From contig NZ_CP103289.1 in assembly GCF_024757985.1 (NCBI RefSeq), forward strand, positions 3,844,001-3,908,000: DNA of 64,000 nucleotides, given 5' to 3'. The notes beneath the pieces are model-generated. The model did no database searches, was not told where the DNA came from, and saw only the letters and a list, made by a program, of their open reading frames with translations. A program made the translations under genes and the position numbers. Origin of the DNA: Cellulomonas sp. NS3. GTDB lineage: Bacteria; Actinomycetota; Actinomycetes; Actinomycetales; Cellulomonadaceae. Shown here piece by piece: positions 53,815 through 61,938 of this stretch (positions are counted from its first letter, which is position 1; each line of letters begins with the position of its first letter).

Positions 53815-54783
53815 ATGCTCGCTGCGTCCGTGACCCGCTTCGGCACCTCGCCCGACGACCTGCTCGACGGCCTCGAGGTAGGGGAGCGTCCCGAGCCCGA
53901 GCCGCGCGAGCACTGGACGACCGTCGACGTGCGCGCCGCCTCGCTCAACCACCACGACCTGTGGTCGCTGCGCGGCGTGGGCCTGCGCGCCGAGGCGCTG
54001 CCGATGGTCCTCGGGACGGACGCCGCCGGGGTCACGCCGGACGGGCGCGAGGTCGTCGTGCACGGCGTCGTCGGTGGTGCGCTCGGCCACGGCGTCGGGC
54101 CCGACGAGCCGCGCTCGCTGCTGTCCGAGCGGTACCCCGGGACGCTCGCGGAGCGCGTCGCGGTGCCGACGTGGAACCTCGTCGACAAGCCCGCGGGGCT
54201 CTCGTTCGTCGAGGCCGCCTGCGTGCCGACCGCGTGGCTGACCGCGTACACGATGCTGTTCACGCGCGGGCGCGCGACCCCGGGCCAGCGCGTGCTCGTG
54301 CAGGGCGCCGGCGGCGGGGTGGCGACCGCCGCGGTCCTGCTCGGTGCGGCGGCCGGGCTCGAGGTGCTCGTGACGAGCCGCGACGAGACGCGCCGGGCCC
54401 GCGCCGTCGAGCTCGGCGCCGCCGGGGCGTTCGAGACCGGCGGCCGGCTCCCCGGCAAGGTGGACCTCGTGCTCGAGACCGTCGGCGCGGCGACGTGGTC
54501 GCACTCGGTGCGCTCCGTGCGCCCCGGCGGCACGATCGTCGTCGCGGGCGCGACCTCGGGCGACGCGAGCCCCGCCGAGCTGCAGCGGCTGTTCTTCCTC
54601 GAGATCAGCGTCCTCGGCGTCACGATGGGCGCCAAGGAGGACCTCGTGCACCTGCTCGCGATGCTCGGGCGCACCGGGGTCCGCCCGCTCGTGGACGCGA
54701 CCTACCCGCTGACGCGTGCCCGCGACGGCCTCGACCGGCTCGCGCGCGGCGCCCAGTTCGGCAAGGTGGTCGTCGAGGTCTGA
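53815..54783 (+). CDS. MDR-family zinc-type alcohol dehydrogenase / quinone oxidoreductase
   Basis: 322 residues. GroES-like N-domain (VRAASLNHHDLWSLRGVGL, VLGTDAAGV), then NAD(P)-binding core VLVQGAGGGVATAAVLLGAA, VLVTSRDETRRARAVELGA, GGTIVVAGATSG. The catalytic zinc Cys is replaced (LNHHDLW) and no structural four-Cys loop is seen, so it is more like a zinc-free reductase. ATG at 53815. Substrate unknown; 54 nt upstream of the GTG of the next hydrolase gene region, possibly cotranscribed with it. Confidence 0.88.
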   Translation: MLAASVTRFGTSPDDLLDGLEVGERPEPEPREHWTTVDVRAASLNHHDLWSLRGVGLRAEALPMVLGTDAAGVTPDGREVVVHGVVGGALGHGVGPDEPRSLLSERYPGTLAERVAVPTWNLVDKPAGLSFVEAACVPTAWLTAYTMLFTRGRATPGQRVLVQGAGGGVATAAVLLGAAAGLEVLVTSRDETRRARAVELGAAGAFETGGRLPGKVDLVLETVGAATWSHSVRSVRPGGTIVVAGATSGDASPAELQRLFFLEISVLGVTMGAKEDLVHLLAMLGRTGVRPLVDATYPLTRARDGLDRLARGAQFGKVVVEV

Positions 54784-54861
54784 CGCGACCCACCCGCCGG
54801 GAGGTCCCGGGCCGGGCGGCACGACGAGCGGCCGGCGGTGCGCCGGCGGAGAGGCGGGCGC

Positions 54862-55839
54862 GTGGTCGGCCGGTGGGGACCCGACGTGCTGGGCGACGAC
54901 TTCCGGGCCCGCACCCTCGCGCTCGCGCCCGACGACGAGGGCGACGTCGTCGCGACCCTCGTGCGGTACGCACCCGCGACGCCCGAGCCGGTGCGGCCCG
55001 CCCGCGCGGTGCTCTACGTGCACGGGTGGTCCGACTACTTCTTCCAGACCGGGCTCGCCGCGTACTGGCACGCCCAGGGCGCCGCGTTCTACGCCCTCGA
55101 CCTGCGCAAGTACGGCCGCAGCCTGCGCCCGCACCAGACGCCCGGCTACGTCGACGACCTGCGCACGTACGACGAGGACCTCGACGCGGCGCTGACCCAG
55201 GTGCAGCGGGACCTCGGCACGAGAGCCCGGGTCATGGTCATGGGGCACTCGACGGGCGGCCTCGTCGCCGCGCTGTGGGCGGACCGCAACCCCGGGCGGA
55301 TCGCAGGTCTCGTCCTCAACAGCCCGTGGCTCGAGCTCCAGGGCTCCGCGGTGCTCCGGAACGTCAGCGCCCCGGCGATCGCGCGCATGGCCCAGCTCCA
55401 GCCGCGTGCGCCGCTGCCCAACATCGACCCCGGGTACTACGCGCGCACGATCCGCTCCGCCGACGGCGGCGAGTGGACCTACGAGGACCGCTGGCGCCCC
55501 GTGCCGTCGTTCCCGGTCCGCGCCGGGTGGCTCAGCGCGATCATGACGGGCCACGCGCAGGTCGCGCGCGGGCTCGCGATCGACGTCCCCGTGCTCACGC
55601 TCGTCTCCGCGCGGACGGTGATCAGCCGGCGCTGGAGCGAGGACATGCGGGCCGCGGACATCGTGCTCGACGTGGACCTCGTCGTGCGCCGCGCCGTGCA
55701 GCTCGGACCCGTCGTCACGGTCGTGCGCGTGCCCGGCGGGCTGCACGACCTCACACTGTCCCCCGCGCCGGTGCGCGCGCGGCTCTACGCCGAGATCTCC
55801 CGGTGGGCGGGCAGCTACGGGTGGGTCGCCGCGGGCTGA
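54862..55839 (+). CDS. Alpha/beta hydrolase, lysophospholipase-like
   Basis: 325 residues: LYVHGWSDYFFQTGLAAYW oxyanion region, DLRKYGRSLRPHQTPGYVDD, nucleophile Ser in VMVMGHSTGGLVAAL, acid region near LTLVSARTVISRRWSEDM, and His in VPGGLHDLTLS. This is the monoglyceride lipase/lysophospholipase (Hydrolase_4) pattern. GTG at 54862 is chosen for GGAGAGG 7 nt upstream; an in-frame GTG at 54838 lacks one. No signal peptide, so cytoplasmic. Confidence 0.87.
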   Translation: MVGRWGPDVLGDDFRARTLALAPDDEGDVVATLVRYAPATPEPVRPARAVLYVHGWSDYFFQTGLAAYWHAQGAAFYALDLRKYGRSLRPHQTPGYVDDLRTYDEDLDAALTQVQRDLGTRARVMVMGHSTGGLVAALWADRNPGRIAGLVLNSPWLELQGSAVLRNVSAPAIARMAQLQPRAPLPNIDPGYYARTIRSADGGEWTYEDRWRPVPSFPVRAGWLSAIMTGHAQVARGLAIDVPVLTLVSARTVISRRWSEDMRAADIVLDVDLVVRRAVQLGPVVTVVRVPGGLHDLTLSPAPVRARLYAEISRWAGSYGWVAAG

Positions 55840-55861: not shown

Positions 55862-57904
55862 TCAGCGGACGCCGGCCGCCTCGGCGAGCGTCGGACCGCC
55901 GTCGCCGACGCGCCACGAGCTCCACCCGTCGACGGCTCCCTCCGCGTTCGCGGCCTCCGCCGCCGCCTCGTCGGGGTCGGCGTGCACGCCGCCGTCGGGC
56001 AGCTCGATGAGGCCGTCGCCGCGCAGCGTCGCGACGAGGCGCTGACCCCGGCGCTCGCGGAACCACACGAGCGTCGCGACGGCGCCGCGCCCCTTGGCGA
56101 GCGCCGCGAGGGCGGGGTCGGGGCTGGGTGCGGAGGACGTGCCGGTCAACGCCGGCCGCAGGGACCCGGTGGGCGGCGTGGGCGGGACGTCGGCGCGCGA
56201 CCGGCGGTCACGCACGGGGAGGTCCTCGTCGGGCCCCGACGCGCGGCCGGGGACGCCCGCGGCCGGGGTCGTCGGGGCCGGGGTCGCGGCGGCCGGGGCC
56301 GTCGCGGCGGGACCGGTCGCGGGACGCGGGTGGTGCTCGTCCGCCGGGGCGGCCGCCCGGGGCGAGGTCGCTGCCGCACCGTGCGCCGGGGTCGGGACCC
56401 GGCGCTCGTCGGCGAGGAACGACGGCCGGTACGGCTCCGGGGTGGGGATCGGCGCGGGCGTCGACCCGGACGGGCTCCCGGTGCCGGGCGCGCCTGCCGC
56501 GGCCGTCGGGAGCGCGCCCGACGCGGCAGGGCTCGCCAGGGCCGGGCCCGACGGGGTCGCGGCTGACGCGGTCGGGGCCGACGCACCCCGGGGTGCCGGT
56601 CCGGAGGCCGCGGTGGACGGGCTCGCCCAGGCCGCGCTCGTCGCCTCGACGGCGGACGAGCCGGTGCCCGTGCCGCTCCGGCCGACGGGAGCCTGACCCA
56701 CCGGGCGGTCGGGCAGGAAGATCGGCGCCGTGAGCGGGCTCGGCTCCCGGCGGGCCGGGCGCAGCCGTGCGGCGTCGAACGCGCGCGCACGGGCGAGCGC
56801 CTCGTCCGCGGCCCGGAGCTCGGCGGCGTGCACCGCGGGGTCGCGCGGGAGGTCAGTCGTGGTGCTCTCGTCGGCACGCCGCCGGGCCGCGGCGCGCTCC
56901 TCGGCGGCGCGCTGCTCCTCGGGGCGCGGCGCGAACCCGCCGGAGCGCGTCGGGGGCTCGGGCAGCGCCTCGTCGTCGTCGAGCCGGACGGGCGCCATGC
57001 GCATGGTCAGCTCGACGTCCGCAGGGACTGCGAGGGCCGGGCGCGCGGCCGGCACGGGTGCGGGCGTGGGTGCCGGCGCAGTCGGCGCCAGGGCCCGCGT
57101 GAGCGCGGAGCCAGCGGCGGGCGCCGGGTCAGCGGTCGGCGCCGGGTCTCCGGCGCTCGGGGGCAGGTCCCACTCGTCCGCGGAGGGCCGCGGCACGGGC
57201 ACCGGCTCGGGCCGCGGGCGCTCCGCGGCGGCCGCTCGCGCCGAGACGCTCTCGTGCGCCGACGCCCCCGTCACGGTCAGGGGCGCGGGCACCGGGGCGG
57301 GGACGATCATCGCGGCGGGCTCGACGGGGCGCGGGGTGCGGTGCGGGCCGAGCTGGACGGGCGAGACGTCGACGTAGCGGCGCCCGTCACCGCCCTGCAC
57401 GACGCCCATCTGCAGGACCTCGACCTGGCGGCCCGGCTGGCGCAGGAACGCCAGGGCGTCGCTCACGTCCTCGTCGACCTCCGAGCACACGAGGACGAGG
57501 CGGGAGCCCGTGCGAGGTGCGTGCTGGGCGGTGAGCGGCGAGCGGTCGCGGAACACCGCGAGGTCCGCGTCGAACGCCTCGCGGCCGCCCTGGTAGGCGC
57601 GGGCGAGGTCCGAGCGGGTGAGCCGGGCGGCCTGGCCCGCGAAGCCCAGGGCGCGCACGAGCGCCTCGGCGTCGAGCAGGTGGACCACGTCGACGACGAC
57701 CGGCTGACCGCCCGCGTCGAGCGCGAGCAGGTGCGGCGCCTCGTCGTCCTCGTGCCGCACGCGCACCTGGAAGAGCTGCTCGCCGAGCAGCGCGGTGAGG
57801 TGGTCGGCGACGAGCGCGGAGGTGTCCGGCGCGAACGTCGAGCTCGCGGGCTGCATGGGCTGGACGAGGAGGGGTCGACCTTCGTCGAGCTCGAAGATCG
57901 GCAC
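55862..57904 (-). CDS. Protein with degenerate nuclease-like N-terminus and C-terminal RAMA-like domain
   Basis: 680 residues in three parts. (1) Residues ~1-180: alpha/beta domain with RVRHEDDEAPHLLALDAGGQ, PVVVDVVHLLDAEALVRAL and LVLVCSEVDEDVSDALAFLR. The D-x-GG-PVVV-D-x-V stretch recalls the PD-(D/E)XK core, with Val where the catalytic Lys should be. (2) ~410 residues of Ala/Pro-rich disordered linker. (3) Residues ~598-680: GAVATLVWFRERRGQRLVATL, DGLIELPDGGVHADPDEAA, and DGWSSWRVGDGGPTL, closely following the RAMA domain pattern (G..L.W...G..A.V..DG.I...G....P..AA....GW..W.V...L), a domain predicted to bind DNA near modified bases. GTG at 57904 with GGGAGGGAGAGG upstream. Function unknown. 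Monocistronic, 22 nt from the convergent hydrolase stop. Confidence 0.8.
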   Translation of the reverse strand: MPIFELDEGRPLLVQPMQPASSTFAPDTSALVADHLTALLGEQLFQVRVRHEDDEAPHLLALDAGGQPVVVDVVHLLDAEALVRALGFAGQAARLTRSDLARAYQGGREAFDADLAVFRDRSPLTAQHAPRTGSRLVLVCSEVDEDVSDALAFLRQPGRQVEVLQMGVVQGGDGRRYVDVSPVQLGPHRTPRPVEPAAMIVPAPVPAPLTVTGASAHESVSARAAAAERPRPEPVPVPRPSADEWDLPPSAGDPAPTADPAPAAGSALTRALAPTAPAPTPAPVPAARPALAVPADVELTMRMAPVRLDDDEALPEPPTRSGGFAPRPEEQRAAEERAAARRRADESTTTDLPRDPAVHAAELRAADEALARARAFDAARLRPARREPSPLTAPIFLPDRPVGQAPVGRSGTGTGSSAVEATSAAWASPSTAASGPAPRGASAPTASAATPSGPALASPAASGALPTAAAGAPGTGSPSGSTPAPIPTPEPYRPSFLADERRVPTPAHGAAATSPRAAAPADEHHPRPATGPAATAPAAATPAPTTPAAGVPGRASGPDEDLPVRDRRSRADVPPTPPTGSLRPALTGTSSAPSPDPALAALAKGRGAVATLVWFRERRGQRLVATLRGDGLIELPDGGVHADPDEAAAEAANAEGAVDGWSSWRVGDGGPTLAEAAGVR

Positions 57905-58133: not shown

Positions 58134-61079
58134 TCAGCCGGCCCCCGTGACCGCGTCCGCGCCGAGCGGCAGGTGCGCCGCGAGCAGCTCCGCGAGGTGC
58201 ACCCCCTGGACCCCGGCGAGCTGCTCGGCCTGCGTGCGGCACGAGAACCCGTCGGCGAGGTACACGTCGCCCGGCGCCGCGTCGCGCAGCGCGGGCAGCA
58301 GCGCGTGCTCGGCGACGGCCACCGACGTCTCGTAGTGGCCCTTCTCCATCCCGAAGTTCCCGGCGAGGCCGCAGCACCCGGCGAGCGTCGAGAACTGCGC
58401 GCCGGCCTCGGTCAGGAGCGTGCGGTCGGCGGTGTACGTCATCACGGAGTGGTGGTGGCAGTGCGGCTGGACGACGGCGGTCACGCCGGACAGGTCCGGG
58501 AGCTCCCAGCGCTCGCGCGGGCCGATCGGTGCGGGGGCGGTGAGCAGCTCCGCGAGGGTCCGGGTCTCGCGCGCGACCGCGACGGCGCGGGGGTCGTCGG
58601 GCAGCAGGTCGAGCAGGTCCGAGCGCAGGACGGCGGTGCACGACGGCTCGAGGCCGACGATCGGGATGCCGTTGACGGCGTACGGGCCGAGCACGCCGAG
58701 CAGGTGCGTGAGCCGGTCGCGCGCGCCGTCGAGCTGGCCCGTGGTGATCCACGTGAGCCCGCAGCACGCCTCGTCCTCGGGCACGATCACCTCGTAGCCG
58801 GCCGCCGTCAGCACCCGCACCGCGGCCTGCGCGACGGACGGCGCGAGGCCGTCGCTGAAGGAGTCGGTCCACAGCAGCACGCGCGGCTTCCGGGCACCCT
58901 CGGGCGCCTCGTCGTCCACCGCGCCCGCACCCCGCGTGACCTGCGCCGCGCCCGCACCGCGCGCCCACGCGCGGAACGGCGTGGGGGCGAACGTGACCAT
59001 CTTCCGGCGCGTGTCCATGCCGCCCGCGGCGAGCACGAGCTTCGCGACGGGGCGGATCCCGAGCGCCGCGTTGGCGAGCCGCGCGAGCCCGGGCACGCCC
59101 GTCACGAGCCGGGTCCAACGCGGGAGCCAGCCGAGCGCGTAGTGGCTCACGGGGCGCAGCCGCCCGCGATAGGTCCGGTGCAGCACCTCGGACTTGTACT
59201 GCGCCATGTCGACGCCCGCGGGGCAGTCGCTCGAGCAGGCCTTGCACGCGAGGCACAGGTCGAGCACCTCGTGGACCTCGGGCGCCGCCCAGCCCTGCGT
59301 GACGAACGTGCCGTTCGCCATCTCCTGGAGCACGCGGGCCCGGCCGCGGGTCGAGTCCTTCTCGTCGCGCGTCGCGAGGTACGACGGGCACATGAACCCG
59401 CCGGTCGCGGACGTGTCGGCGCGGCACTTGCCGACCCCGACGCAGCGGTGCACGGCCGTCGTGAAGTCCCCCGCGTCGTGCCCGAACGCGAACCCGCCCG
59501 AGCCCGCGAGCAGCGACCGGGCGTGCGGGCGGCGCAGGTCGGCGTCGAGCGGCCGCGGGCGCACCAGCACCCCGGGATTGAGCAGGTCGCGCGGGTCGAA
59601 CAGGTCCTTGACGGCCTCGAACGCCGCGATCGCCGTCGCGGAGTACATGACCGGCAGCAGCTCGCTGCGCGCGCGCCCGTCGCCGTGCTCGCCCGAGAGC
59701 GAGCCGCCGTGCGCGGCCACGAGGTGCGCGGCGTCGGTCATGAAGGCGCGCAGCGGGTCGCCCGAGCGCTCGAGCGGGACGTCGAGGCGCAGGTGCACGC
59801 ACCCGTCGCCGAAGTGCCCGTAGGCGAGCCCGTCGACCGCGTGCGTGGCCATGAGCGCCTCGAGCTCGCGCAGGTACGCGCCGAGCCGGGCGGGCGGCAC
59901 CGCGGAGTCCTCGAAGCCGGGCCAGGCCTGCTCGCCTGAGGGCGTGCGCCCGCCGAGCCCGGCGCCGTCCTCGCGGATCCGCCACATCGCAGCGGCCTGC
60001 GGTCCCGGCGGGAACACCCCCACCGCCTCGGTCCGCGCGTCGGCCGCGAGCGCGCGCGCCCGGGACATCGCCTCGTCGAGGTCCGCTCCCCCGACCTCGA
60101 CCATGAGCCAGCCCGCACCCGTCGGCAGCGGCGGCACCGCGCTCGCGCCCTTGACGCGGCGCACGACGTCGACGAGCCGGGCGTCCATCCCCTCGATCGC
60201 GAGCGGGGCGTGCGCCAGCAGCGCGGGCACGGCGTCGGCGGCCGTCGGCATGTCCGGGTAGCCGAGCACGACGAGCACGGGTGCGGCGGCGATCGGCACG
60301 AGGTTCACGGTCGCGCCGAGCAGGGTCACGAGGGTGCCCTCGGTGCCCACGAGCGCCTTCGCGAGGTCCGCGCCGTTCTCGGGCAGCAGGTGCTCGAGCG
60401 AGTACCCGGAGACCTGCCGGCCGAAGCGGCCCAGCTCGGTGCGGATCGTCTCGAGGTTCGCGCGCACCAGGGCGTCGAGGCCCGGCACGGGGTCGAGCCC
60501 GCGCGCGGCCTCGAAGCGCCGGCCCGTGCCGTCGACCACGTCGAGCGCGAGCACGTTGTCCGCGGTGCGTCCGTACGCCACCGCGCGCGGGCCGCACGCG
60601 TTGTTGCCGATCATGCCGCCGAGCGTGGCGCGGGCCTGCGTCGACGGGTCGGGGCCGAAGCGCAGCCCGTGCGGGGCTGCCTGGCGCTGGAGCTCGGACA
60701 TGACGACGCCGGGCTCGACGCGCGCGGTGCGGGCCTCGGGGTCGATCGCGAGCACGCGGTTCACGTGCCGGGAGAAGTCGAGCACGACGCCGGTGCCGAC
60801 GGCGTTGCCCGCGACGGACGTGCCCCCGCCGCGCGACGTCAGCGGGACCCCCGCCGCGCGCGTGACCTCGAGCGCGGCCAGCACGTCGTCGGTGTCCCGC
60901 GGGAACACGACGACCTGCGGCACGACGCGGTAGTTCGACGCGTCCGTGGAGTACTCGGCGCGACGCCGGGAGGAGTCGTCCACGGAGCCCCGGACCGCGG
61001 CGCGCAGCGCGGCGACGACGTCGGGGGTGGGCTGCGCGGCCGCGTCCGGGCGCTGCGCGGGATCCGTCACGGTCGACAC
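58134..61079 (-). CDS. FAD-linked D-2-hydroxyacid dehydrogenase fused to Fe-S (GlpC-like) subunit
   Basis: 981 residues, similar in size and layout to E. coli YdiJ (D-2-hydroxyglutarate dehydrogenase). Residues ~40-270: FAD-binding PCMH fold with TSRGGGTSVAGNAVGTGVV and GPDPSTQARATLGGMIGNNA. Then FAD-oxidase C-domain (YGHFGDGCVHLRLDVP, SGEHGDGRARSELL). Then two 4Fe-4S sites (CVGVGKCR..CPSY and CLACKACSSDCPAGVDM), and two CCG repeats (DEACCGLTW, AGCCGLAGNFGMEKGHYE). GTG at 61079; the frame upstream to 61910 is antisense to the divergent gene. Oxidises a D-2-hydroxy acid (D-lactate, glycolate or D-2-hydroxyglutarate; exact substrate unknown) and passes electrons to the membrane quinone pool or an unidentified acceptor. 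Confidence 0.92.
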   Translation of the reverse strand: MSTVTDPAQRPDAAAQPTPDVVAALRAAVRGSVDDSSRRRAEYSTDASNYRVVPQVVVFPRDTDDVLAALEVTRAAGVPLTSRGGGTSVAGNAVGTGVVLDFSRHVNRVLAIDPEARTARVEPGVVMSELQRQAAPHGLRFGPDPSTQARATLGGMIGNNACGPRAVAYGRTADNVLALDVVDGTGRRFEAARGLDPVPGLDALVRANLETIRTELGRFGRQVSGYSLEHLLPENGADLAKALVGTEGTLVTLLGATVNLVPIAAAPVLVVLGYPDMPTAADAVPALLAHAPLAIEGMDARLVDVVRRVKGASAVPPLPTGAGWLMVEVGGADLDEAMSRARALAADARTEAVGVFPPGPQAAAMWRIREDGAGLGGRTPSGEQAWPGFEDSAVPPARLGAYLRELEALMATHAVDGLAYGHFGDGCVHLRLDVPLERSGDPLRAFMTDAAHLVAAHGGSLSGEHGDGRARSELLPVMYSATAIAAFEAVKDLFDPRDLLNPGVLVRPRPLDADLRRPHARSLLAGSGGFAFGHDAGDFTTAVHRCVGVGKCRADTSATGGFMCPSYLATRDEKDSTRGRARVLQEMANGTFVTQGWAAPEVHEVLDLCLACKACSSDCPAGVDMAQYKSEVLHRTYRGRLRPVSHYALGWLPRWTRLVTGVPGLARLANAALGIRPVAKLVLAAGGMDTRRKMVTFAPTPFRAWARGAGAAQVTRGAGAVDDEAPEGARKPRVLLWTDSFSDGLAPSVAQAAVRVLTAAGYEVIVPEDEACCGLTWITTGQLDGARDRLTHLLGVLGPYAVNGIPIVGLEPSCTAVLRSDLLDLLPDDPRAVAVARETRTLAELLTAPAPIGPRERWELPDLSGVTAVVQPHCHHHSVMTYTADRTLLTEAGAQFSTLAGCCGLAGNFGMEKGHYETSVAVAEHALLPALRDAAPGDVYLADGFSCRTQAEQLAGVQGVHLAELLAAHLPLGADAVTGAG

Positions 61080-61178
61080 GGCTGCAGTCTCCCACCCACA
61101 GCCCAGCGTCCGCGCAGGGTGACCAGGTTCACCCTGGTGGCCGTGCATGCCGGCCCGCACCGTGCCGATATCTCTTGC

Positions 61179-61736
61179 ATGACAGGCACAGCACGGCACC
61201 CCCGCTCGCGGGAGCGTCGCAGCTTCGTGCCGTCCCCCCGCGGCACCGCGGGACGCGCGGCCCCCGACGTGCGTCCCGCGGTGCGCGGGCTGGATCCCGC
61301 CGAGGCCATGTGGCTCGCGGAGTCCCGCGAGCTCCTGCGCGGCCCCGGCCTGGACCTCACCGACGTCGACCGGCTCGGCGTCCTGCTCGACGAGCTCATG
61401 GGTGCCTGGCACGCCGTCGAGCCCCCGCTCCGCTGGGACCCGGTGCCCACGATCACCGCGCTGGGCCTCCTCGCCGGCGACGTGATCGTCGCCCGCGTGC
61501 CCGGGCTCACGTGGGTCCGCATCGAGGGCTCGCCGAGCATCGCGCTCGCACACCCCCGCACGACGACGCTCGAGCTGCCCCTCGACGCCGTCGCCGCCCT
61601 GTGGGAGGCCGGCGTCCCCGAGCAGCTCCCCACGCTCGTGCGCGAGGTCACCGACCGGACGCTCGCCCGCGTCACCCAGGTCGACGAGCCCCCGCGGCTC
61701 ACGGGCGCACTGCGGCTGCTCGCTCGCCTGCGCTGA
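61179..61736 (+). CDS. DUF3806-like protein
   Basis: 185 residues: a Arg/Pro N-terminus, then LLDELMGAWHAVEPPLRWDP, GLLAGDVIVARVPGLTWVRI, SPSIALAHPRTTTLELPLDAVAAL. The pattern of a short domain (cofactor-free, reading age, WVRI, polar end) recalls DUF3806, seen in small cytoplasmic proteins of unknown role. ATG at 61179 lies only a few bases after an AT-rich stretch (gatatctcttgc), consistent with a leaderless message. Divergent from the FAD dehydrogenase; function unknown. Confidence 0.7.
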   Translation: MTGTARHPRSRERRSFVPSPRGTAGRAAPDVRPAVRGLDPAEAMWLAESRELLRGPGLDLTDVDRLGVLLDELMGAWHAVEPPLRWDPVPTITALGLLAGDVIVARVPGLTWVRIEGSPSIALAHPRTTTLELPLDAVAALWEAGVPEQLPTLVREVTDRTLARVTQVDEPPRLTGALRLLARLR

Positions 61737-61938
61737 CGACCGGGTCGGCAGCACGCCGACCGGCACGCGTGCCGAGCACGCTCGGCGGGCGACCGGACGC
61801 CAGGACGTCGGCGGCTCCGCACGTCCGACCGCCGGGGCGTCCGCTCCGCCACCCCGGAACGACCCCCGCACCGACCGCCCCGCGCCGACGCACGCGCGCA
61901 CGTCGCGCACGCCGCCGGCCCGGGACGGACCGCGCGGG

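What the first reader, a model, noticed from the sequence alone, without database searches (positions are those of the whole stretch)
55862..57904. Nuclease-like domain joined by a 410-residue linker to a RAMA-type domain
The C-terminus (~598-680) matches the pattern of RAMA domains, predicted from comparative genomics to recognise modified DNA and usually attached to methylases or restriction enzymes. Here it is on its own chain with an N-terminal alpha/beta domain recalling PD-(D/E)XK nucleases but with Val in place of the catalytic Lys. No methylase is nearby. This could be a modified-base reader or a restriction-derived housekeeping protein of actinomycetes.
Basis: partly seen in the sequence, partly recalled or inferred. 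Interest (0 to 1): 0.7.

Follow-up and report, generated by a model that had tools for sequence, protein, structure and literature searches.

The report
Retired DNA-cutting enzyme kept as housekeeper
This gene makes a protein that appears to descend from a bacterial DNA-cutting defence enzyme, has lost its cutting residues, and has still been kept in nearly all sampled close relatives, so it probably does an unstudied non-cutting job in the cell.

Summary
The 680-aa ORF (minus strand, 57904 to 55862) ends in a RAMA domain (PF18755, E 1.2e-10, above cut-off). It begins with a NucS-like PD-(D/E)XK domain whose D-E-K triad reads His58-Asp72-Val74; a 407-residue Pro/Ala-rich linker joins them.

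Relatives explain it. Short nuclease-RAMA proteins (four of five are 294-319 aa) keep D-E-K and have no long linker. One directly follows a Type ISP restriction-modification gene; two are on Dietzia plasmids after lsr2. The window form lacks the catalytic Lys in 115 of 115 clade members read. It occurs in 93 of 101 sampled genomes of its family, in a recurring gene neighbourhood, with both domains under purifying selection (dN/dS 0.11 and 0.13; linker 0.41). A quick tree needs one loss.

So it is a vertically inherited, catalytically dead descendant of a mobile defence nuclease. No association with three adenine-methylase families was seen (low power), and its RAMA differs from CcrM at four of five listed contact positions. 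Its job is unproven; I favour a non-cutting chromosome-associated adaptor. New variant of a known kind.

The parts
55862..57904 (-). whole CDS, 680 aa, GTG start, stop included
   Evidence: start matches close relatives
57344..57904 (-). N-terminal dead PD-(D/E)XK (NucS-like / PADLOC PDC-S11-like) domain, residues 1-187
57731..57733 (-). His58 codon, at the place of the PD-motif catalytic Asp
57716..57718 (-). Asp63 codon, Asp in 121 of 123 homologues (window included)
57689..57691 (-). Asp72 codon, at the place of the catalytic Glu
57683..57685 (-). Val74 codon, at the place of the catalytic Lys
   Evidence: no Lys here in 115 of 123 homologues
56123..57343 (-). Pro/Ala-rich linker, residues 188-594; length 71-569 aa among 83 family members
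55865..56122 (-). C-terminal RAMA domain, residues 595-680 (Pfam match 603-674)
58134..61910 (-). upstream neighbour on the same strand: ORF of an FAD/Fe-S oxidoreductase (about 1000 aa in relatives, so its true start is probably inside this ORF)
   Evidence: Pfam domains read on its homologue L146; homologue in 27 of 37 dead-type neighbourhoods
54838..55839 (+). convergent downstream neighbour: alpha/beta hydrolase
53815..54783 (+). next downstream neighbour: zinc-type alcohol dehydrogenase / quinone oxidoreductase

Best explanation
Supported by the calls: the protein is a catalytically dead, vertically inherited descendant of a short NucS-like nuclease-RAMA protein of the defence kind. The triad was lost, a long linker separates the domains, and both end domains have been conserved as a core chromosomal gene in the window's family and some related families. 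Inferred: it works as a non-cutting adaptor on or near the chromosome. The dead nuclease fold is kept as a binding or dimerisation module, and the RAMA fold, on a flexible tether, engages a second site (DNA backbone or a protein) without reading methylation. I put the identity and history at about 0.9 and the adaptor mechanism at about 0.35.
For: RAMA by Pfam; low-confidence model with MPND 7ydt Z 6.7, 7ydw Z 6.5 and CcrM 6pbd Z 4.3 among its five best rows. N-domain homologous to intact nuclease-RAMA proteins (99.93%, E 1.5e-34; five control families at most 0.18%) and through intermediates to NucS. D-E-K complete in 0 of 115 dead-clade members and in 8 of 8 others. One change of the Lys on a quick tree. 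N-domain in 93 of 101 family genomes. FAD/Fe-S gene in 27 of 37 dead-type neighbourhoods and 0 of 4 others. Median dN/dS 0.11 (N-domain), 0.41 (linker), 0.13 (RAMA) over 73 non-independent pairs. Intact forms directly after a Type ISP gene and on two plasmids. The window's N-domain matches no plasmid but those two, which carry intact forms, and no phage record.
Against: The adaptor step is inference only. The protein is acidic (net -17, one Lys in 680 aa); its RAMA averages -1 in 83 family members against 0 in 3 intact forms and +3 in 11 other RAMA domains. At the CcrM positions it has D643, D645, D659, W661, A677, so DNA contact by the usual RAMA face is doubtful. The N-domain model had pLDDT 41. 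The direct hhalign of the dead profile to NucS is weak (0.74%), and the profile that finds NucS is mostly of intact rows. 8 of 101 family genomes show no match. Four family members have a frame that ends before RAMA, and two f3 members show no RAMA. The tree is quick, with long branches.
Confidence: 0.5

Rival explanations
1. A protein-protein scaffold with no DNA contact: both the nuclease fold and the RAMA fold have been turned into protein-binding or DNA-mimicking acidic modules.
For: Acidic N-domain and RAMA; H317 position Asp in 66 of 83 and R350 position Arg in only 10 of 83, while the Trp is kept in 83 of 83.
Against: The three intact forms have equally acidic N-domains (median -11) and two of three already have Asp at the N330 position, so these do not by themselves show loss of DNA binding. 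Two Arg near the start of RAMA are kept in 79 and 78 of 83.
Confidence: 0.25
2. A regulator or antidote: a dead nuclease that pairs with and blocks intact nuclease-RAMA proteins, or modulates the host mismatch nuclease NucS.
For: Homologous to both; a separate NucS match lies in this genome at C1:3341757.
Against: Intact nuclease-RAMA forms look rare: G147 and G394 gave the only two near-full-length matches among 394 class genomes at E 1e-8 (at most 5 candidates per genome scored); a third, G231, came from the order sample. That gives little reason to keep an antidote in 93 of 101 genomes. nucS is not in the window's neighbourhood.
Confidence: 0.15
3. A reader of modified DNA (for example N6-methyladenine).
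For: RAMA domains were proposed as 6mA readers, and one study cited in PMC9963953 reported 6mA binding by MPND (passages).
Against: No association with PF01555, PF02384 or PF07669 (Fisher p 1.0, 1.0, 0.461; 15 of 93 holders have none of the three; only 8 non-holders). No 6mA effect for MPND in PMC9963953 itself. Changed contact positions.
Confidence: 0.1
4. Still an active nuclease with a catalytic residue moved elsewhere, as happens in some PD-(D/E)XK enzymes (recalled).
For: Asp63 position is Asp in 121 of 123, and the Glu position is E in 77 and D in 7 of the 93 family members.
Against: No Lys at all in the N-domain of 47 of 93 family members, the window's included; PD Asp lost in 89 of 93.
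Confidence: 0.05

Closest known systems
Short nuclease-RAMA proteins (for example L036, L039, Dietzia XAU45155.1, annotated hypothetical protein)
   Same: Same two domains in the same order; N-domain homology probability 99.93% (profile of L036, L039, L071)
   Different: Intact D-E-K and no long linker; 294-319 aa in four of five (G394 has an open frame of 364); beside a Type ISP gene or on plasmids in three cases
PADLOC candidate PDC-S11
   Same: N-domain match: window E 3.6e-5, three intact forms E 7.1e-21 to 2.8e-24
   Different: The five PDC-S11-like proteins read keep D-E-K and showed no RAMA by my profile
EndoMS/NucS mismatch endonuclease
   Same: Same nuclease superfamily by profile
   Different: No Pfam NucS match and no complete catalytic triad in the window protein
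CcrM C-terminal domain and MPND RAMA
   Same: RAMA by sequence profile and by a low-confidence model
   Different: Four of five CcrM positions differ; some of these also differ in other RAMA domains
RAMA-fusion endonucleases noted in PMC11037411 (RAMA-Mrr-NTPase, GIY-YIG-RAMA)
   Same: RAMA joined to a nuclease fold
   Different: Other nuclease folds; the passages read do not describe a dead, core-genome form

Membership tests
RAMA (PF18755) | Pfam gathering score | tested here: met
   41.7 bits against 35.2
RAMA (PF18755) | fold like MPND / CcrM C-terminal domain | tested here: inconclusive
   Model pLDDT 61; 7ydt Z 6.7, 7ydw Z 6.5, 6pbd Z 4.3, all below 8
RAMA (PF18755) | CcrM residues S315, H317, N330, W332, R350 (named for structure or phosphate binding in PMC6787082, passages) | tested here: not met
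   D643, D645, D659, W661, A677: one of five kept. H317 is His in 0 of 11 other RAMA domains and N330 is not Asn in the 3 intact forms, so these are not strict marks of the family
RAMA (PF18755) | linked to a methylase or restriction system | tested here: not met
RAMA (PF18755) | recognition of modified DNA | not testable with these tools
   needs binding assays; disputed even for MPND
PD-(D/E)XK nuclease superfamily, NucS-like | sequence homology | tested here: met
   hhalign to intact forms 99.93%; profile A3, 11 of 15 rows intact, finds 2vld E 6.7e-9
PD-(D/E)XK nuclease superfamily, NucS-like | catalytic D-E-K | tested here: not met
   His58, Asp72, Val74; complete in 0 of 115 clade members
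PD-(D/E)XK nuclease superfamily, NucS-like | fold | tested here: inconclusive
   Single-sequence model pLDDT 41; EndoMS and other nucleases among rows with Z below 5, mixed with unrelated folds
EndoMS/NucS | Pfam NucS match | tested here: not met
   Only RAMA matched the window protein at E up to 1
PDC-S11 defence candidate (PADLOC) | profile match | tested here: inconclusive
   E 3.6e-5 over 130 of 358 positions
PDC-S11 defence candidate (PADLOC) | anti-phage activity | not testable with these tools
   no assay

The most novel reading that the evidence does not exclude
A mobile anti-DNA weapon was disarmed once in an ancestor of several families of the window's order and became a permanent chromosome-organising or chromosome-surveillance protein: two remodelled DNA-recognition folds on a long flexible tether, a new class of nucleoid-associated pseudo-nuclease.
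Probability: 0.2. Interest if true: 0.8.

Novelty: new variant of a known kind. Interest (0 to 1): 0.5.

Why it matters
It gives a countable case of a defence-type nuclease that lost its chemistry and became a core gene, with intact relatives still at hand to compare. It also warns that a RAMA domain need not mean a methylation reader: here the domain is nearly fixed in genomes without visible regard to adenine methylases, and its surface has changed at positions that CcrM uses.

Tried and rejected
Direct proof of the nuclease fold by structure prediction failed. The N-domain model, folded alone, had pLDDT 41, and its PDB neighbours (all Z below 5) mix nucleases with unrelated folds such as acetyl-CoA carboxylase, so I lean on sequence profiles. 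The RAMA model (two sequences, pLDDT 61) gave MPND first, but YopQ (Z 5.3) and SpeB (Z 4.8) rows come before CcrM (Z 4.3).

Direct hhalign of the dead profile to NucS was weak (0.74%) and Pfam gave no nuclease hit for the window protein. The link is only through intact intermediates.

NCBIfam found nothing; phmmer of the window protein against PDB found nothing. The two viral-contig scans confirmed no relative and phage records gave none. The class-wide profile search scored at most 8 first-look candidates per genome, so its 6 of 394 is a lower bound.

A V-E-P motif after the N-domain was found in only 22 of 83 and dropped. In one search three RAMA column labels (N330, G331, W332) were one column off; one search replaces them. 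The six diverged RAMA ends were scored in a set of only 8 sequences, so their E-values (2.6e-7 to 1.5e-4) are not comparable with whole-library ones.

Papers: a search for 'RAMA domain' found 4 papers. I read passages of three; the fourth (PMC12707154) was seen only in the listing. None of these passages describes this family. Of PMC6787082 and PMC5290159 I read passages. 'PDC-S11' gave two papers (listing only). Listings 62, 70, 99 and 102 showed nothing on this family in titles and abstract starts. NucS catalytic residue numbers were not found in the two NucS papers searched, so the Asp-Glu-Lys assignment rests on alignment and on the general PD-(D/E)XK motif (recalled).

Full report
1. The observation. 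The ORF at 55862-57904 lies on the minus strand: 680 aa, GTG start at 57904, with a GGAGG-type sequence just before it. Close relatives start at the same residue. The C-terminus is a RAMA domain by Pfam (PF18755, residues 603-674, E 1.2e-10, 41.7 bits, cut-off 35.2), the only RAMA match in the genome. A profile of 16 RAMA domains including it finds CcrM 6pbd (E 3e-7) and MPND 7ydt (E 7.8e-5) among solved structures. A model of the C-terminal 102 residues (pLDDT 61) has MPND 7ydt (Z 6.7) and 7ydw (Z 6.5) as its two best rows and CcrM (Z 4.3) fifth, after two unrelated proteins.

2. The N-terminal domain. Alone it matches no Pfam, NCBIfam or PDB entry at the thresholds used. The decisive evidence came from relatives. 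Two short proteins, L036 (319 aa, genome G231) and L039 (303 aa, G147), have the same N-domain and RAMA in the same order without a long linker. L036 reads IPDILALDEAGRVVVIEIKRD, an intact PD-(D/E)XK motif; the window reads APHLLALDAGGQPVVVDVVHL at the same place. Those intact forms match NucS_C weakly by Pfam (E 0.0044 and 0.0011, below the curated cut-off). A 15-row profile (3 nuclease-RAMA, 8 PDC-S11-like, 4 dead rows) finds NucS 2vld at E 6.7e-9 and EndoMS 5gke at E 8.4e-5. hhalign probabilities: dead to intact 99.93%, dead to PDC-S11-like 99.1%, PDC-S11-like to NucS 91%, intact to NucS 26%, dead to NucS 0.74%; five unrelated neighbour families at most 0.18%. PADLOC's PDC-S11 profile matches the window at E 3.6e-5 and three intact forms at E 7.1e-21 to 2.8e-24.

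3. Loss of catalysis. Among 123 homologues read, the window included, the Lys position holds Lys in only 8: three nuclease-RAMA proteins (G147, G231, G394) and five PDC-S11-like nucleases without a RAMA hit. In the other 115 (93 of the window's family, 11 of f3, 10 of f13, 1 of f12) it is never Lys, and the complete D-E-K set occurs in 0 of 115 against 8 of 8. In the window's family the PD Asp is Asp in 4 of 93 and His in 60 of 93; the Glu position is still Glu in 77 of 93. The Asp63 position is Asp in 121 of 123 overall. In 47 of 93 family members, the window's included, the N-domain contains no Lys at all, which speaks against a displaced catalytic Lys. A quick maximum-likelihood tree of 122 rows (G062 left out as a fragment) puts the dead forms on one side of a branch with SH-aLRT 98 and needs one change of the Lys. 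It has long branches and no bootstrap, and the triad's own columns were left in.

4. Conservation. The N-domain is in 93 of 101 genomes of the family, drawn evenly from a larger group: one match each, except one genome with a second, weak and interrupted match. In the order, 39 of 198 genomes have an N-domain match, intact forms included. RAMA in the same frame was found in 83 of the 93. Of the other ten, six end at a contig edge (G018, G037, G064, G080, G081, G091) and four have a frame that ends before RAMA (G043, G051, G052, G074). In three of those four a RAMA lies in another frame; in G051 none was found in the stretch fetched. Five f13 members and one f3 member keep a diverged RAMA-like end, weakly scored, while two f3 members (G176, G189) show none. 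Median dN/dS over 73 pairs (N-domain identity 80-98.5%, not independent) is 0.11 for the N-domain, 0.13 for RAMA and 0.41 for the linker. Linker length runs from 71 to 569 aa (median 227, 83 members), 18% Pro and 18% Ala.

5. Setting. I read 41 neighbourhoods (37 dead-type including the window, 4 others) with a simple gene caller; some are cut by contig ends. A gene for an FAD/Fe-S oxidoreductase occurs in 27 of 37 dead-type and 0 of 4 others. Where both genes were assigned (21 cases) they are on the same strand in 21 of 21 and next to each other in 12 of 21. Convergent genes downstream (dehydrogenase, hydrolases, Cys/Met enzyme, pyrophosphatase) recur as well. A recurring place in the window's family, f3 and f13 suggests vertical inheritance. 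By contrast the intact form of G147 starts within 5 bp of the last sense codon of a 1634-aa Type ISP restriction-modification gene. Two intact forms, 41% identical to L036, sit on Dietzia kunjamensis plasmids directly after an lsr2 gene. The G231 contig has a GntR/UTRA regulator gene nearby, as some integrative elements do (recalled). The window N-domain's only plasmid matches are those two Dietzia records, and phage records gave none.

6. Methylases. PF01555 occurs in 35 of 101 family genomes, PF02384 in 63 (many hits weak) and PF07669 in 56. Holders of the gene do not differ from the 8 non-holders (32 of 93 against 3 of 8; 58 of 93 against 5 of 8; 53 of 93 against 3 of 8; Fisher p 1.0, 1.0, 0.461), and 15 of 93 holders have none of the three. 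With only 8 non-holders this test has little power. The window's genome has no PF01555 or PF07669 match and one PF02384 match at its cut-off (20.1 bits, 20.5 with its neighbours, cut-off 20.4). PF02086 was not searched.

7. The RAMA surface. PMC6787082 names Ser315, His317, Asn330, Trp332 and Arg350 of CcrM as invariant residues for structure or phosphate binding (passages read). The window has Asp643, Asp645, Asp659, Trp661 and Ala677 there. Across 83 family members the five positions are His/Asp/Ser/Asn (38/29/11/5), Asp in 66, Asp in 78, Trp in 83, and Arg in 10. Eleven other RAMA domains have Ser/Thr in 11, Ser/Thr in 9 (His in none), Asn in 8, Trp in 8 and Arg in 6; the three intact nuclease-RAMA forms have Ser, Ser, Asp/Asp/Pro, Trp and Arg. 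So the changes special to the dead clade are at the S315, H317 and R350 positions; the N330 change is already present in intact forms. Median net charge is -1 (83 family members), 0 (3 intact), +3 (11 others). Against a total loss of DNA binding, two Arg near the start of the domain are kept in 79 and 78 of 83. MPND's RAMA bound double-stranded DNA without sequence preference or 6mA effect (PMC9963953, passages), although an earlier study cited there reported 6mA binding.

8. Reading. Supported: a once-active nuclease-RAMA pair was disarmed, acquired a long linker and is kept under purifying selection as a core gene. Inferred: the protein does a non-cutting job as an adaptor between two sites. 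I cannot say from sequence whether it touches DNA directly. A methylation reader and a still-active enzyme are less likely. The kind (nuclease joined to RAMA) is mentioned in PMC11037411 (passages). The dead, core-genome form was in none of the passages I read nor in the titles and abstract starts listed by searches.

Noticed in passing
L164:1520-7334 (genome G147): Intact nuclease-RAMA gene directly after a 1634-aa Type ISP restriction-modification gene, same strand, a few bases apart; it may be a further component of that system.
   Followed up: partly
L258:7507-8897 and L259:2217-3607 (Dietzia kunjamensis plasmids): Intact nuclease-RAMA gene directly after an lsr2 gene on two plasmids: a possible pairing of a silencer with a nuclease.
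   Followed up: partly
L259:5530-6291: An erm 23S rRNA methyltransferase gene is annotated about 2 kb from the nuclease-RAMA gene on plasmid pDK313-83.
   Followed up: no
L037, L047, L057: RAMA domains on 309-394-aa proteins whose other half looks like a GIY-YIG nuclease (read by eye), a fusion noted in PMC11037411.
   Followed up: no
L001, L002: In Cellulomonas cellasea NBRC 3753 the assembly breaks inside this gene: its two ends lie at the ends of two contigs.
   Followed up: no
window 1-64000: GATC occurs 338 times against 272.6 expected (0 of 100 shuffles as high); may be only codon usage.
   Followed up: no
window 55865-56122: The RAMA profile also weakly matches the anti-CRISPR AcrIF5 (E 0.023), perhaps chance.
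   Followed up: no
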